NCBI GenBank assembly: GCA_016212295.1
Contig: JACRGO010000073.1
Location: 1-57,760 of the forward strand
Reading direction: 5' to 3'
DNA: 57,760 bases
Origin: Nitrospinota bacterium
GTDB lineage: Bacteria; Nitrospinota; Nitrospinia; JACRGO01
Both the position numbers and the translations under genes were made by a program. The notes below the pieces were generated by a model that had not been told where the DNA came from, did no database searches, and saw only the letters and a program-made list of their open reading frames with translations. Of this stretch, positions 41,715 to 53,798 are shown piece after piece; positions within the stretch are counted from its first letter, which is position 1; the number at the start of each line of letters is the position of its first letter.

Positions 41715-42239
41715 TCATTTTTCTTCCTTGCAACCTTTAAACCCTATTTTGGGGCGAAGGGGTGCGGATGGGGTCATCAATTGCCTTATTGCGTCGAACA
41801 CAACCTTGAATTGGGCGTCGTATTTCTTCTCCATGACTTCCAACTTTTTTGCCAAGTCTTTGTGGGCCGCAAGCATTTGCCGCAACCGCACGAAGGTCCG
41901 CATGATCTCTATATTCACCTTGACGGCCCTTTCACTATTGAGCACAGTGGAGAGCATGGCCACGCCCTGCTCGGTGAAAACATACGGGAGATAGCGGCGC
42001 CCTCCACGGCCTCCTTTTTTTGACATTCCAATTTGGAATCTCAAAGAATCAGTTTCCTCTTTGGTGAGCTGAAACATGAAGTCTTGAGGGAAGCGTCCAA
42101 CATTTCTTTTCACCGCCTTATTGAGATTGAAAGTCTCTACTTCATAAAGTTCCGCTAAATCACTGTCCAGCATGACTTTCTCACCACGGATCAGAAAGAT
42201 TTTCTTTTCGATGATTTCAACCGGTATCAAAGCTTCCAT
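41715..42239 (-). CDS. ORF6N domain protein
   Basis: [53 protein letters not shown]...[38 protein letters not shown]. Confidence 0.93.
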
Positions 42240-45404: not shown

Positions 45405-45605
45405 TTAGAATGTCCAGTTTTCTTTCTTTACCCATTGTGACAAGCGGTCGCCATAGCCCCCAATCTCGTTATAGACTTCGCGGACCGAGATGATGGTGCC
45501 ATCATTTACCAAACGATCAAACTTTTCCCATAATGAAGGAAAACGTTCCGGGTAAAAGTTGTTGAATAAATCAATCAAGGCACCGCTGTCAAAAACATAC
45601 CTCAT
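45405..45605 (-). CDS. truncated PIN-like (DUF4411-type) toxin
   Basis: MRYVFDSGALIDLFNNFYPERFPSLWEKFDRLVNDGTIISVREVYNEIGGYGDRLSQWVKKENWTF* stops at 66 aa, immediately before the res start; 4-nt overlap with upstream gene. Confidence 0.65.
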   Translation of the reverse strand: MRYVFDSGALIDLFNNFYPERFPSLWEKFDRLVNDGTIISVREVYNEIGGYGDRLSQWVKKENWTF

Positions 45606-46774
45606 ACGGCAACTCCCTTACGGAACAGCATTGCTTCCATGCCAGGCACGCTCTTTACTTTCACTCCAAGATAATCCGCTAGTTGTTCCGTTGAAATTCG
45701 CTTCTGATAATACCGGCTGAAAGCCATCTCTAAATATGGTTCCCCAAGATAGGCGCCGGTGTTCCGGTAATAATCTCCGCCTGTGCGCGATTTTTTGCTG
45801 GCTATCGCTCGTTCCCATTCCCGGACTTTGTCTTCGTAATATTTCTGATTAACCATGCTTCGGTCAACCATTTTTCTAAGAATGGCTTCTCTGCTGACAT
45901 GATAGCAATCGGCAAGTTTCTGGATTGATGCGTCATCTATCCTCATACCTTTTGTTCTCCGGGCAAAATCGCGCGAGGGAACAAGGAATTCCCCGGCAAA
46001 ACGATTGCAAAGAATTTCTATCCGGCGATTGTCTCCATGCAGGTAGTTAAGATAGTCTTCTATGCGCGTATCCACGCCGCCGGTCCGGAACAACAAATGC
46101 GCCAATTCATGAAAAAGCGTGAAAATCTGCCGGCTTTTTGACTTGCTGTTGTTTACATAAATTACAGGGAATTGTTCGTCATACAAACAAATTCCTGAGA
46201 AATCGTCCGCCTTGAAAACGGCCTTAAAGACAAAAACTCCGTGCTCTTCCAAAGCATGGCGCCAGGATTTAAGCGCCTCTTCGCTGTCCTTCCATTTAGT
46301 TTGCATGGCAATATCTATTTGCAAATATTCACGAACAACCGTTGCCATCTTCTCGGCTGACACATCCGGAGCAAAAGACAGGTCCCGCGCAATTTGCCGC
46401 TCCGCGGGGTTGATATTGTCATACAGTTCGGCGAGATTCAGTTGCCGAACCTTCGCTTCCCGGATCAAGAAATGTATCCGTGGCGGCATCAAATCGATTT
46501 CATATTCCGGCAAGGTGCGGAAAGTTTGTTCAGGTGTCTCCTCCGAAGGCGGATCGGGAAAAAAGAACAAGGCCAGGGGACGCCTATAAATCCTGTAAGC
46601 CAGAGTTTCCAACTGGGGATATGTAGGAGCGCTCTCGCCCCGTTCCCAGGCGGCGATTGTTTCAGCGGTAATACTTTTTCTATCGAGTTTAAGGACCACT
46701 TCCTCAACGGAAAAACCCGCTGTTTGGCGTGCCCATTGTAAAATCGCCGGATTTACTGGAATTGGCTGTGTCAT
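45602..46774 (-). CDS. XRE-family HTH + ImmA/IrrE metallopeptidase domain protein
   Basis: N-terminal HTH (FSVEEVVLKLDRKSITAETIAAWERGESAPTYPQLETLAY); FTLFHELAHLLF (HExxH). Confidence 0.93.
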   Translation of the reverse strand: MTQPIPVNPAILQWARQTAGFSVEEVVLKLDRKSITAETIAAWERGESAPTYPQLETLAYRIYRRPLALFFFPDPPSEETPEQTFRTLPEYEIDLMPPRIHFLIREAKVRQLNLAELYDNINPAERQIARDLSFAPDVSAEKMATVVREYLQIDIAMQTKWKDSEEALKSWRHALEEHGVFVFKAVFKADDFSGICLYDEQFPVIYVNNSKSKSRQIFTLFHELAHLLFRTGGVDTRIEDYLNYLHGDNRRIEILCNRFAGEFLVPSRDFARRTKGMRIDDASIQKLADCYHVSREAILRKMVDRSMVNQKYYEDKVREWERAIASKKSRTGGDYYRNTGAYLGEPYLEMAFSRYYQKRISTEQLADYLGVKVKSVPGMEAMLFRKGVAV

Positions 46775-47625
46775 ATCCTCACCTCAACAATCTTCATGGT
46801 ATCATTGCCGAAAATATCAACAACTTTCACCGCTATTTTACGCCTTCCCGGCTTGCATTCCTGGAACACGCTTTTAAGCTCCAGTGAGCGGTCCTTCTTG
46901 GTGCGGAAGGATTGCCATTCGTTCTCAAAGACATAATCCCCGGTCCAGACCTCTCCCCACCCCTCGCTTTCGGCGTTCCTCACCCTTATTATCTCCCGCT
47001 TGCTCTCGAAATCAAAATCCACCGCCCAATAATCCACCCAATCCGTCCAATGCCTGGTCAATACCTCGCGGGTGACAATGCCGTCCTTGTCCTTGCTCAC
47101 CTTCACGATCCGGCCCTTTTCCACCACTATCTTGCTGGCCTTATCCTTCAACGCGGCCTCGGCCTTGGCGACGGAATCCTGGGAATAGAAGACGGAGAAG
47201 TCCGTAAGCTCAACCGCGACCTTGTGGGGCGCATGGCCATGCGCCCCTGCAACATGGGGTTTGACCTCCAGGAAGGCCACGTCGTGGAACACCACCTGGT
47301 TTTTCTCCACCGCCCGCTTGTCGAACACGTCGGCCGGGATGTATTTTGGCGCGATATCTATTCCCTTGGCCCTTGCCTCGTCCAGCGCGTTGGGGAAAAG
47401 CCCCATCTCGAACTCAAAGGCCAGGATGTCCACCTTGGTGACATGCTTCTTGCGGCACTCCAGGATGATCTCTTCAACGAAAAGCCGCGTCACCGGCAGG
47501 TTCACCGGCCCCACAGCCACCAGCCTCCCGGCCTTCTTGCCGTGGAAGGCGTGGAACCCTTCTGTCTTCTCGGCCCTGTAAGCTTTCAGGATCAAGTCGA
47601 GAAAATCCTTCTCCTTCGCTTCCAA
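46771..47625 (-). pseudogene. C-terminal part of type III Mod, in frame with 47665-49044 but separated by a TGA
   Basis: Same frame as the upstream mod; only a TTG start; the 14 codons between read VNPDLREEERQKQL. Confidence 0.75.
47226..47247. repeat. 22-bp perfect palindrome GGGGCGCATGGCCATGCGCCCC within the mod reading frame
   Basis: Exact self-complementarity; translated as part of HVAGAHGHAPHKV. Confidence 0.85.
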
Positions 47626-47664
47626 CTGTTTCTGCCTTTCCTCTTCACGCAGATCTGGGTTGAC

Positions 47665-49044
47665 TCAAATATAGTGCTGGCGCTCGTACTTGCCGAGATT
47701 AAGAATTTCAAAGGCGCGGTAAGGTTTATTTTCTTTCTTGAGTTGGCGTTGAGCGCCGATCATCCGCTTGCGCGTGGTGTGGATGGCGAATTTTCCCAGG
47801 TCGGAGGTTATCCACTTTCTGCCCAGCTTTTCCGCCACGGCGGCCGTGGTGCCGGAGCCGCAGAAGAAATCGGCCACAAGATTGCCTTCATTGGAAGAGG
47901 CTTTGATGATGCGTTCGAGGAGGGCTTCGGGTTTTTGGGTGGGGTAATAAAGTTGCTCGTTGCCAGTCGCAACTGTGATATCGCTCCAGATATCTGGGAC
48001 TTTTTCACCTGGACTTTCATCCAAATAGTGTTTCAGGCCTGGATAGCCAGTTTTTGAATAAACTATCCTTCCCTGTTGATCTAACATCTCCATTTTTTCT
48101 TTCGCGTACACCCAGCAGCGCGAAGACGGTGGTCGTTTTCCCTTCCATTCGTATATTTGCCCTGATGCGGCTCTCGACATGGATGCAGTTAAATCATTTA
48201 TTCGATATCGTCTACCTGTTTTTTCTTCAATGTTCCTATACATATTGTCGACATATTCATCTCGTAAATCTCTATAAGGCTGATTCCAACTGGCATGATC
48301 CAAATTTTTATCATAGAGAAGAATCATGTCATGAATTGCTCCAAATTTTCTTTGAGCGTTACTTTTACTGGTGATCCGTTGCCAAATAATCTCATTTTTG
48401 AAACTATTTTTTCCAAATACTTCGTCTAGGGCGAGCCTCATGTATCCGTTTACATGCCAATCACAATGCACATAAATACTCCCTTCCTCCGCCAGCAAAT
48501 CCCGCATCAGGACCAGCCGCTCATGGATCATGGCGATAAAGGAGTCCGCGCCCTTGCCCCAGGTGTCGCGGTAGGCGATTTCTTCCAGGATATTGGGCTT
48601 CTTGGTGAAGGTGTCGCCGCCGATCTCGATGTCCATGGAGAAATCCGCGCCGACATCAAAGGGCGGGTCGATGTAGATGAGTTTGATGCCGCCCTGCTTT
48701 TCGATTTCTTCCCGAAGCGGGCCGTTCTTCAGGCTGGAGAGGACCAGCTTGTTGTCGCCCCAGATGAGCTTGTTGGTCCAGCCCTTGAGCTGGCGGCCGC
48801 GGGAATCGGTGTCAAACAGGCCGAATTGCAGAGAGGCGTCCTTCTCCGAGCGCGGTTCATCCACATGCTCGATCACCTGAAACGGCAAAACGATGTTGCA
48901 GACCTCGTTGGTCTTGCCGTTCCATATCAGTTCCACTTCCCGCTTTTCATCAAACAGCAGAAAGCGGTATTTGTCAGGCAATGGCTTGTCCGCCTCCAGA
49001 AAGCGGATTATGTCTTGCTTTTCCTGCTCCGTCAGTCGCGCCAT
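47665..49044 (-). CDS. type III site-specific DNA-methyltransferase (Mod), N-terminal/catalytic part
   Basis: KLIYIDPPFDVGADF (DPPF), VADFFCGSGTTAAVAEKLGRKWITSDLGKFA (SAM motif). Confidence 0.92.
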   Translation of the reverse strand: MARLTEQEKQDIIRFLEADKPLPDKYRFLLFDEKREVELIWNGKTNEVCNIVLPFQVIEHVDEPRSEKDASLQFGLFDTDSRGRQLKGWTNKLIWGDNKLVLSSLKNGPLREEIEKQGGIKLIYIDPPFDVGADFSMDIEIGGDTFTKKPNILEEIAYRDTWGKGADSFIAMIHERLVLMRDLLAEEGSIYVHCDWHVNGYMRLALDEVFGKNSFKNEIIWQRITSKSNAQRKFGAIHDMILLYDKNLDHASWNQPYRDLRDEYVDNMYRNIEEKTGRRYRINDLTASMSRAASGQIYEWKGKRPPSSRCWVYAKEKMEMLDQQGRIVYSKTGYPGLKHYLDESPGEKVPDIWSDITVATGNEQLYYPTQKPEALLERIIKASSNEGNLVADFFCGSGTTAAVAEKLGRKWITSDLGKFAIHTTRKRMIGAQRQLKKENKPYRAFEILNLGKYERQHYI

Positions 49045-50921: not shown

Positions 50922-50936
50922 ACGGGACCTCCAAAA

Positions 50937-51344
50937 TTATTTTGGGGCGTTGGATTTTATACTCTTTATAATGGAGTCCAGGCTCGCGACCTTTAGTCTG
51001 AACCCACCGAAATCCATCTCATAGGCTTCGGCTCTGAGGGAGGCAAAGGACTTTATCCCATGCACATCCGGCATGAACTCGAGTTGAATTCCGGAATTGT
51101 CGTTCACTACACGGTATAGTCCGGATAAAGGATAGTATGGCTTTAGAATATAAGCGTCGAGTTCCCGCGCCAGAACCTTGAGCTTTCGCAAATTCAATGG
51201 GGTCTTCCGGAACATAAAGCCAAAGTCCATTGTGGTGACCGGCGCCCCCTGTAAAGCGGCCGCCGCGTTGCCGATGAGCACCGTTTCAAGTCTGGCCTTT
51301 GTCAATGCTCCTGCTATTTTTTCTAATAAAGGTTCCGCGTTCAT
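50937..51344 (-). CDS. nucleotidyltransferase-like (AbiEii/MNT-like) protein, possibly shortened
   Basis: LETVLIGNAAAALQGAPVTTMDFGFMFRKTPLNLRKL...LKVASLDSIIKSIK. Confidence 0.6.
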   Translation of the reverse strand: MNAEPLLEKIAGALTKARLETVLIGNAAAALQGAPVTTMDFGFMFRKTPLNLRKLKVLARELDAYILKPYYPLSGLYRVVNDNSGIQLEFMPDVHGIKSFASLRAEAYEMDFGGFRLKVASLDSIIKSIKSNAPK

Positions 51345-51379
51345 TTGGCCTTTCCCTCGTTTTCTGTCATAAAAAAATC

Positions 51380-51626
51380 GTAACCGTTCACGGTTTCAGG
51401 TTCAGGGTTCCAGGTTTTAGAAAACCCTGTATCCACGCTTATCTCCAAAACCCGCTTACCTATATGGATTTTCATTGAGCGCTGCTAAAAACAGGTTAAC
51501 CAACAGGTTCAATGTGGAGCGCCCTAAAAAAACCTTGTTGGGGCGAATAATCATTCGCCCTTACATTGCCGTGTTTGACGATCTTTCAACCCTGAACCCT
51601 GAACCTTAGACCCCGTGAACGGTTAC
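51380..51626. mobile_element. MITE-like element copy 2 (247 bp), perfect 14-bp TIR GTAACCGTTCACGG
   Basis: Shares internal sequence with 6366-6555 (ttttagaaaaccctgtatcc, ggattttcattgagcg, caatgtggagcgccctaaaaa, ctttcaaccctgaaccctgaacc). Confidence 0.85.
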
Positions 51627-51664
51627 ACCACCAGGACACAGAGAAAAATTGCGATCTTTGCGCC

Positions 51665-52669
51665 TCATTTCTTGTATCCAACTTGTTCCTCAAAAAGCGT
51701 TAATTGGCCAGCGCCCTCATGTTGGATTCGATATCCTCCTGTGTTTTCATTGGGAAGAGTTGCAGTGCTATCCGCAAAAACAGAAAGCGCCTCTCTCATA
51801 TTTGCCCTGCCTGTGGCTCGACTTTTGTGAAGCGGCCTTGCGCCTTGCTTAAGCAACTCCTGATTGCCTGTCGCGGTTTCCGGCATTCCTTCATAGACAG
51901 GCGCAAAAAGGGGAACTCCCATTTTCAAGGATTCACGGCCTGCCTCTATGCTTCCGCCCGTTGTTCTTGCCTCAATAAGAATCATCACATTTGACAATGC
52001 GCATATTGTTTTGTTGCGCTGCATGGCATTCCTTACGCTCCAGGGGATTCCCGGCAGGAATTCACTTACAACCGCGATTCTCCGCCAATCCCAAATATCC
52101 TTGAATTCCCGTTTAATATGGAATTTCAGTATCCCCTCGCAGAGGACAAGGGTGGTCGTTCCTACGCTTTCAAGCGCGGCGCGATGTGCCGCCATATCAA
52201 CGCCTGCCGCGTAACCGGAAATTATGTTTATCTCCCGCCGCGCAAGTTGTTCAGCGCAATCATAAGCCGTATCCAAACCCTTTTCCGATGCCTTGCGGGA
52301 ACCGCAAAATCCAGTGGAAGGCTTATTGAGCAAACCGGAGTTCCCAAGAACCATTAATAAAGGCGGCGCTTTTTTCCCAAACAGGGTCTTTAACCTTTGC
52401 GGATATTCATCATCAGTAACGGATATAACCTTGACGCCAATATCATTGAGCCGGTCCCAAAGTTCATCGACCTTGTTCTTATTCGCGGAATACTCCGATA
52501 CCTGCTTTTCATTAAGTATTCCTCTTAATAACCGTGGGTCACTGAAAAAATTGCCGGCAGATTTGCTTTTTTCCGTCAGGCGTTCGAGAATTGACATTGC
52601 CTTTGCAACCCCTACTCCTGGCGTTTCAAGAAGATGCAGCAGATGGTATGAAATATTGTCAGCAATCAT
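51665..52669 (-). CDS. DprA-like (SLOG/Rossmann) protein; start may be further upstream (52696 or 52783)
   Basis: LLETPGVGVAKAMSILERL HhH-like; GFCGSRKASEKGLDTAYDCAEQLARREINIISGYAAGVDMAAHRAALESVGTTTLVL. Confidence 0.85.
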   Translation of the reverse strand: MIADNISYHLLHLLETPGVGVAKAMSILERLTEKSKSAGNFFSDPRLLRGILNEKQVSEYSANKNKVDELWDRLNDIGVKVISVTDDEYPQRLKTLFGKKAPPLLMVLGNSGLLNKPSTGFCGSRKASEKGLDTAYDCAEQLARREINIISGYAAGVDMAAHRAALESVGTTTLVLCEGILKFHIKREFKDIWDWRRIAVVSEFLPGIPWSVRNAMQRNKTICALSNVMILIEARTTGGSIEAGRESLKMGVPLFAPVYEGMPETATGNQELLKQGARPLHKSRATGRANMREALSVFADSTATLPNENTGGYRIQHEGAGQLTLFEEQVGYKK

Positions 52670-53567
52670 TTTGAACCCGTGGAATGTTGTCGTCATTCCT
52701 GCATGTCTTTTCACAGGCCAGTCCGAAAACTTTTTCAGCGCCGGCCTCAAGCATCCGCATAGCGACGTAATTTGTTGAAACACCTGATTGATAAAGGTCT
52801 TCTATAAGAAGGACCGTCTGGCCTTTGAGGGCTTCCGGATCAACCATAATAGTTCCTTCAATGGTTGGTAGCTTATTCTCAAGCTTCATATCCTTAAGAC
52901 CGGCCCTTGCCCTAATTGTACTTACATCATGGCTCAAATTCGGCATACCACGTTATTCCGCTATTTTTGCAGCCAGATAGCTCGGCAAATCATAGGCTTT
53001 GTCCGGGCTCGATGAGGGCATTGCGACCACGCAAGTAGCTGAACTATAGCAGGTCATTTCTTCGAGAAATGCGCGACAGAGGGAACTAATGTCATTCGCT
53101 GCCGCATAAGTGTCCTCTGTTGGATTGCCGCTGTAAGGTTTTGCCCGTGTCCTGAGCATTCCTATCTCAGTCTGTGGTTTGGCTGGATTCCCGTCTTCTC
53201 TGTCATAATCCAGTGCAAAAGAAAGGGCAAGACAATCTCTATTAGCGATATATTGACCGATAAGCTTCAACCAGTCTTGTACCTTCTCAAGCATATCAGG
53301 ATTCGTTTCTACATTTTTAAGAAAAGTATATCCTCTACCGTCCTTACTTTTTCTAATGCCAATATGAGGAACATCGCACATGGATTCAAATGCATTGCCA
53401 AGAGTTTCCGTGAAAGGGAGAACCAGGGACCAATCATCCGAAGACGCCGGTTCATGTAATGACTCAGGCCATTCTACCGACAACTTCATCCTACGCGGCC
53501 GCCATGTAATCATTTCCTGTACTCTGGCTTTAGTTATGGCTTCCTGCCGGGGTTTTGCTATCGGCAT
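52659..53567 (-). pseudogene. phosphoribosyltransferase-domain protein interrupted by an in-frame TAA at 52953-52955
   Basis: 53567-52953 (...CVVAMPSSSPDKAYDLPSYLAAKIAE*) and 52946-52659 (MPNLSHDV...GQTVLLIEDLYQSGVSTNYVAMRMLEAGAEKV) are in one frame. Confidence 0.75.
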
Positions 53568-53798
53568 ATTCTTCCCTCTGCACTATATGAAATCAATTTT
53601 CGATATTACAGTCATCAAGCCTTTCTGATATATTCATTCCTGAAAGAGACTCTCGAAAAAACTCCCCAAAAGAGGTCGCAGTCTGACACTCCTCCAGGGT
53701 GCAATCTTTATCACACGCTTCCCGTACTTTAGGCTCTAAAATTCCCAAAAAATGTGGGTAAAGATTAGCTCTCAAGAGGGGAATTATTAGTGTATGCT

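What the first reader, a model, noticed from the sequence alone, without database searches (positions are those of the whole stretch)
50922..53798. Putative SLOG (DprA-like) + phosphoribosyltransferase two-gene system in a defence-like island
A divergent DprA-like Rossmann protein starts within the end of a phosphoribosyltransferase-domain gene (~11-nt overlap if ATG 52669 is used), implying coupled expression. The PRTase has a ~150-aa unfamiliar N-terminal region before the AMPSSS...VLLIEDLYQSGVST core. SLOG and PRTase domains have both been linked to nucleotide-based conflict systems (Burroughs and Aravind type predictions). Location between broken efflux genes, next to a MITE and a nucleotidyltransferase-like gene, fits an uncharacterised immune or stress system.
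Basis: inference. Interest (0 to 1): 0.72.

Follow-up and report, generated by a model that had tools for sequence, protein, structure and literature searches.

The report
Broken DprA–phosphoribosyltransferase toxin–antitoxin defence pair
This is a rare branch of a known bacterial self-poisoning anti-virus system (a phosphoribosyltransferase toxin with a DprA-like antitoxin), and in this genome the toxin gene is cut by a stop codon while the antitoxin gene is whole.

Summary
The pair is real. An intact DprA-like gene (52669-51665, minus strand) overlaps by 11 nt the end of a phosphoribosyltransferase (PRTase) gene (53567-52659). So the copy here is probably a toxin-dead remnant. It is not competence machinery: the genome has a separate dprA beside topA and a separate comF, and none of 76 other genomes of the phylum has this DprA. 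It belongs with the known DprA–PRTase toxin–antitoxin defence systems (PsyrTA/RqlHI, ShosTA): PADLOC PsyrA matches at 4e-55, and predicted structures match solved ShosA and ShosT. Of 15 DprA genes of this clade found by DprA alone, 14 have a PRTase or its remnant directly upstream. The clade is well supported (99/98), separate from housekeeping DprA, ShosA and RqlI/PsyrA. Its toxin has no RecQ helicase; its N-terminal ~110 residues match no known family. The flanking efflux genes are intact; a same-genus genome has related operons uninterrupted, so the pair, a repeated MITE and type III R-M genes look inserted. Verdict: new variant of a known kind; local copy probably dead.

The parts
52956..53567 (-). 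N-terminal piece of the PRTase toxin gene (204 aa, ATG 53567): clade-specific N-terminal region plus the first part of the PRTase domain (AMPSSSP loop)
   Evidence: toxin profile E 1.5e-39
52953..52955 (-). in-frame TAA nonsense codon inside the PRTase domain; homologues have a sense codon here and there is no gap in the alignment
52659..52952 (-). C-terminal piece of the PRTase toxin gene, with PRPP loop VLLIEDLYQSGVST; 97 codons after the TAA (95 from ATG 52946); ends 11 nt inside dprA
   Evidence: toxin profile E 3.6e-32
51665..52669 (-). intact DprA/SLOG-like antitoxin gene, 334 aa (ATG 52669)
51355..51645 (.). MITE-like repeat with terminal inverted repeats (51392-51416 / 51588-51612); 74 matches in the genome; downstream of the pair, not part of the system
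50937..51344 (-).

Best explanation
The locus is a decayed copy of a DprA–PRTase toxin–antitoxin (abortive-infection) module, of a clade separate from PsyrTA/RqlHI and ShosTA. In intact relatives the PRTase toxin would bind PRPP through its DDLYQSG loop and damage purine-nucleotide or DNA metabolism. The DprA-like partner, translated from the adjoining downstream gene, would bind the toxin and DNA and hold toxicity in check until infection or DNA stress upsets the balance. In this genome a single nonsense codon (TAA, 52955-52953) removes the C-terminal, PRPP-binding part of the toxin, so the toxin is most likely inactive and the intact DprA is an orphan antitoxin. Shown: gene order, overlap, domains, the stop codon, clade, conserved pairing. 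Inferred: toxicity, neutralisation, trigger, phage defence, loss of function here.
For: DprA matches PADLOC PsyrA (4.1e-55) and ShosA (1e-37); toxin C-piece matches PsyrT (3e-6) and ShosT (8.4e-6); 12 of 13 toxin-alignment rows match ShosT and PsyrT models, best 2e-15. AlphaFold models: L004 toxin homologue pLDDT 90, matches solved ShosT (8zvb, E 1.6e-5; 8zvc, ShosT with PRPP-Mg) and ComF; window DprA pLDDT 87.7, matches ShosA 8zva at E 3.8e-18. Of 15 loci found by DprA alone, 14 have a PRTase or remnant directly upstream. Toxin and DprA trees show the same subgroups. Patchy: 1 of 77 genomes of its own phylum, 8 of 396 in that of L005, and only the seed genome among 395, 359 and 339 in three others. 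Defence neighbours in 5 of 8 loci with long flanks. Housekeeping dprA and comF lie elsewhere. Literature: RqlH PRTase toxicity needs the PRPP pocket and is curbed by RqlI, in the same gene order (PMC4670107); a DprA–PRTase pair protects against T7 and lambda (PMC9122126); ShosT alters the purine pool, ShosA counters it, T7 Gp0.7 triggers it (review PMC12593503 citing Pu et al. 2025).
Against: No experiment on this clade. Toxin-side sequence matches to known toxins are weak (about 1e-8 to 1e-15), so the reaction could differ. The TAA could be an assembly or consensus error: the genome is a 237-contig assembly and no second assembly of the locus was found. No close relative of the clade was found in the phage, plasmid or IMG/VR collections.
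Confidence: 0.8

Rival explanations
1. The pair is intact in the living population and the TAA is a sequencing, assembly or minority-variant error; the module is an active toxin–antitoxin system.
For: The frame after the TAA keeps protein-level similarity (about 55% identity to L004) with no indel; the genome is a fragmented assembly.
Against: TAA is a substitution, not the homopolymer indel seen in L010 and L051. Broken toxins with whole DprA occur independently in L006 and L050, so real loss is plausible.
Confidence: 0.2
2. The two PRTase pieces are both made, the second by termination-reinitiation at ATG 52946 just after the TAA, and assemble into a working split enzyme.
For: The ATG begins 6 nt after the TAA in the same frame; both pieces keep family similarity.
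Against: No intact relative is split there; they have one frame. The cut falls within the PRTase domain. No clear ribosome-binding site is seen in the junction sequence.
Confidence: 0.05
3. DprA and PRTase here are competence (natural transformation) genes, a dprA/comF pair.
For: DprA domain, and weak TIGR00201 comF hits of the PRTase (4.2e-5 for L004, 23.6 bits against a cut-off of 233.55).
Against: Separate housekeeping dprA next to topA (C116) and comF (C212) in the genome; NCBIfam dprA equivalog cut-off not reached, 117.7 against 191.15 bits; the DprA tree excludes it from housekeeping DprA; patchy distribution.
Confidence: 0.03

Closest known systems
PsyrTA / RqlHI (RecQ-helicase–PRTase toxin + DprA-like antitoxin)
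   Same: Gene order toxin then DprA, near or overlapping genes, DprA closest in the unrooted tree (branch 100/97), best PADLOC hit PsyrA
   Different: Toxin has no RecQ helicase (about 270-302 aa against 710 aa) and a DDLYQSG instead of DDIVDSG loop; DprA forms its own clade (99/98)
ShosTA (PRTase toxin ShosT, with a HAD domain in PfAC02a, + ShosA)
   Same: PRTase without helicase followed by DprA; predicted folds match solved ShosT and ShosA
   Different: No HAD domain seen; different, unrecognised N-terminal region; DprA does not group with ShosA
DprA–PRTase pair of P2-like phages (Rousset et al. 2022, PMC9122126)
   Same: Two-gene DprA + PRTase anti-phage pair
   Different: Those are in P2-like prophages; this clade was not found in the phage collections
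Competence DprA and ComF
   Same: Same domain superfamilies
   Different: They are separate genes of the same genome; different clade

Membership tests
DprA–PRTase toxin–antitoxin superfamily (PsyrTA/RqlHI/ShosTA) | DprA-like (SLOG) antitoxin gene directly downstream of a PRTase toxin gene | tested here: met
   window; 14 of 15 clade loci
DprA–PRTase toxin–antitoxin superfamily (PsyrTA/RqlHI/ShosTA) | PRTase with PRPP-binding loop | tested here: met
   [DE]D-[LK]YQSG loop in all aligned members; in the window it lies after the in-frame TAA
DprA–PRTase toxin–antitoxin superfamily (PsyrTA/RqlHI/ShosTA) | Complete, translatable toxin | tested here: not met
   window copy only: in-frame TAA; relatives L004, L005, L007, L008, L048, L049, L052-L054 are open
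DprA–PRTase toxin–antitoxin superfamily (PsyrTA/RqlHI/ShosTA) | Toxicity of PRTase alone, neutralisation by DprA, phage protection | not testable with these tools
   needs experiment
PsyrTA / RqlHI proper | RecQ-type helicase domain at the toxin N-terminus | tested here: not met
   toxins of about 270-302 aa without a helicase Pfam hit; the reference toxin of L057, 710 aa, hits PsyrT over its full length
ShosTA proper | DprA groups with ShosA | tested here: not met
   tree; only one annotated ShosA reference (PfAC02a) was used
ShosTA proper | HAD domain at the toxin N-terminus (as in PfAC02a ShosT) | tested here: not met
   no HAD hit in Pfam; solved ShosT aligned over 194-225 columns with low TM-score. 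Whether every ShosT has a HAD domain was not checked
Competence dprA/comF set | Housekeeping dprA of the genome, or equivalog score, next to competence or topA genes | tested here: not met

The most novel reading that the evidence does not exclude
The clade is a separate helicase-free, HAD-free DprA–PRTase immune system whose clade-specific N-terminal region (about 110 residues, no known family) does the sensing or targeting and may give the PRTase a different substrate from ShosT; genomes that lose the toxin keep the DprA as an orphan antitoxin that protects against incoming copies.
Probability: 0.2. Interest if true: 0.5.

Novelty: new variant of a known kind. Interest (0 to 1): 0.36.

Why it matters
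It adds a well-supported branch to the DprA–PRTase toxin–antitoxin family, with intact pairs in several distant phyla and a toxin N-terminus that no searched database names. Comparing this branch with RqlH (helicase) and ShosT (HAD) could show which part of these toxins senses infection and which part only carries the PRTase. The local case, dead toxin and whole antitoxin, fits toxin–antitoxin logic.

Tried and rejected
Competence dprA/comF reading: rejected. 'Broken efflux genes': rejected; genes intact, operon interrupted. Alternative genetic code: not pursued; the toxin stop is TAA and the other nonsense codon nearby, in mod, is TGA. Asymmetry of toxin versus antitoxin breakage: toxin broken with whole DprA in the window, L006 and L050; L051 has a homopolymer frameshift in the toxin and a short DprA, L010 a homopolymer frameshift in DprA at a contig edge, L009 a frameshifted DprA and no PRTase; too few for a test. 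Searches of IMG/VR with the DprA and with both alignments, and of plasmids with two toxins, found no close relative. The Bacteroidota toxin search gave, besides its seed, only weak partial hits over the PRTase domain. The toxin tree against RqlH/ShosT PRTases has long branches, so its outer placement is not usable.

Full report
What is there. On the minus strand a frame of 303 codons (53567-52659) is followed, with an 11-nt overlap, by a 334-aa DprA-like gene (52669-51665). The first frame carries an in-frame TAA at 52955-52953, which leaves a 204-residue piece and a 97-residue piece (95 aa if restarted at ATG 52946). The alignment with intact homologues has no gap at that place: the window reads AAKIAE*RGMPNLS where L004 reads ATQIATALNKPDKS. 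Both pieces match one profile built from homologues, positions 10-186 at E 1.5e-39 and 191-278 at E 3.6e-32. The break is therefore one codon in an otherwise readable gene. It separates the first half of the PRTase domain from the PRPP loop VLLIEDLYQSGVST.

What family. The DprA has PF02481 at 2.6e-41 but falls far below the NCBIfam dprA equivalog cut-off (117.7 against 191.15 bits). In PADLOC it matches PsyrA (4.1e-55) and ShosA (1e-37); the toxin C-terminal piece matches PsyrT (3e-6) and ShosT (8.4e-6). Of 13 rows of the toxin alignment, 12 match PsyrT and 12 match ShosT, best about 2e-15. AlphaFold models are confident: the L004 toxin has mean pLDDT 90 and the window DprA 87.7. Foldseek finds solved ShosT (8zvb, 8zvc, 8zvd) among the best matches of the toxin (E 1.6e-5 to 3.9e-5, with modest TM-scores) beside PurF and ComF, and ShosA (8zva, E 3.8e-18) and pneumococcal DprA for the DprA.

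Relatives. One scan of 85,462 species genomes with the DprA found seven homologous loci in distant groups (Deltaproteobacteria, Nitrospirae, Obscuribacterales, Pelagibius, Bacteroidota). A search of 396 genomes of the Nitrospirae relative's phylum found eight, seven of them new. With the window this makes 15 loci chosen by DprA alone. In 14 the PRTase, or in L006 a remnant of about 37 residues, lies directly upstream; L009 has other genes there. The DprA tree puts the clade on one side of a branch with support 99/98, nearest to the RecQ-associated DprA, and apart from ShosA and from housekeeping DprA, including the genome's own. The toxin tree repeats the DprA subgroups (window with L004; L005, L048, L049, L050; L052-L054; L008 with L010), so the two genes travel together. 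Members are sparse: only the window genome among 77 of its phylum, and only the seed genome among 395, 359 and 339 genomes of three other phyla.

Not competence. The genome has a second DprA (C116, 28% identical) next to topA, and a ComF (C212). The window pair sits with neither.

Setting. In the same-genus genome G001 two copies of a TolC–TolC–CusB operon (one with CusA in the stretch read) have no gene inserted between them (TolC 53-65% identical, CusB about 30%, so the operons are related, not strictly orthologous). In the window the same series is interrupted by a GxxExxY gene, by the DprA pair + MITE + a 135-aa ORF, and by a type III restriction-modification set (mod, ImmA/IrrE-like, res, ORF6N). 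The MITE has 74 matches in the genome. Defence genes also flank relatives: Wadjet JetC/JetD (L006), AbiU/AIPR (L008), type IIG R-M and NYN (L009), HEPN and HTH genes matching PADLOC models HEPN_IX and HTH_IX, which I take from memory to be retron type IX accessories (L005); with the window that is 5 of 8 loci with long flanks. None were seen at L004, L007 or L010, judged by inspection and one Pfam hit only.

Mechanism. In RqlHI the toxicity of RqlH depends on the PRTase domain and its PRPP pocket, RqlI restrains it and binds RqlH, and the gene order is the same (PMC4670107). A DprA–PRTase pair from a P2-like phage protects against T7 and lambda (PMC9122126). A review reports that ShosT is a PRTase and pyrophosphatase that disturbs purine metabolism, that ShosA counters it, and that T7 Gp0.7 is the trigger (PMC12593503 citing Pu et al. 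2025). I infer the same logic for intact members of this clade. For the window copy I infer a lost toxin and an orphan antitoxin. Whether the TAA is real in the organism cannot be settled here.

Difference from known kinds. The toxins of this clade are about 270-302 aa, with no RecQ and no HAD domain; the region before the PRTase has no convincing Pfam, NCBIfam or PDB sequence match. That makes it a new variant of a known kind. The interest is moderate because the kind and its likely mechanism are already published.

Noticed in passing
window 46771-49044 (-), stop at 47667-47665: The type III mod methyltransferase gene is also cut by one in-frame TGA (ERQHYI*VNPDL). This and the toxin TAA were the only two clear nonsense codons between long coding segments in the window, both in defence genes.
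   Followed up: partly
window 51355-51645: MITE-like element with 74 matches across the genome, several at 92-93% identity; the autonomous partner was not sought.
   Followed up: partly
L006 5843-6939 and 6951-12892: Orphan DprA with a toxin remnant of about 37 residues lies beside Wadjet jetD/jetC genes.
   Followed up: partly
L009 4517-7607: Clade DprA (frameshifted) follows a SocA/Panacea-domain gene and a 241-aa gene of no known family instead of a PRTase, and is followed by a NYN gene.
   Followed up: partly
window 53593-53798 (-): Open frame of about 65 codons between TolC2 and the toxin (ANLYPHFLGILEPKVREACDKDC...) with no family hit; possible gene remnant.
   Followed up: no
window 41715-42239 and 45602-46774 (-): ORF6N protein (PADLOC candidate PDC-S05) and an HTH + ImmA/IrrE-like protein (RmrA/capP-like) sit with the type III R-M genes.
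   Followed up: no
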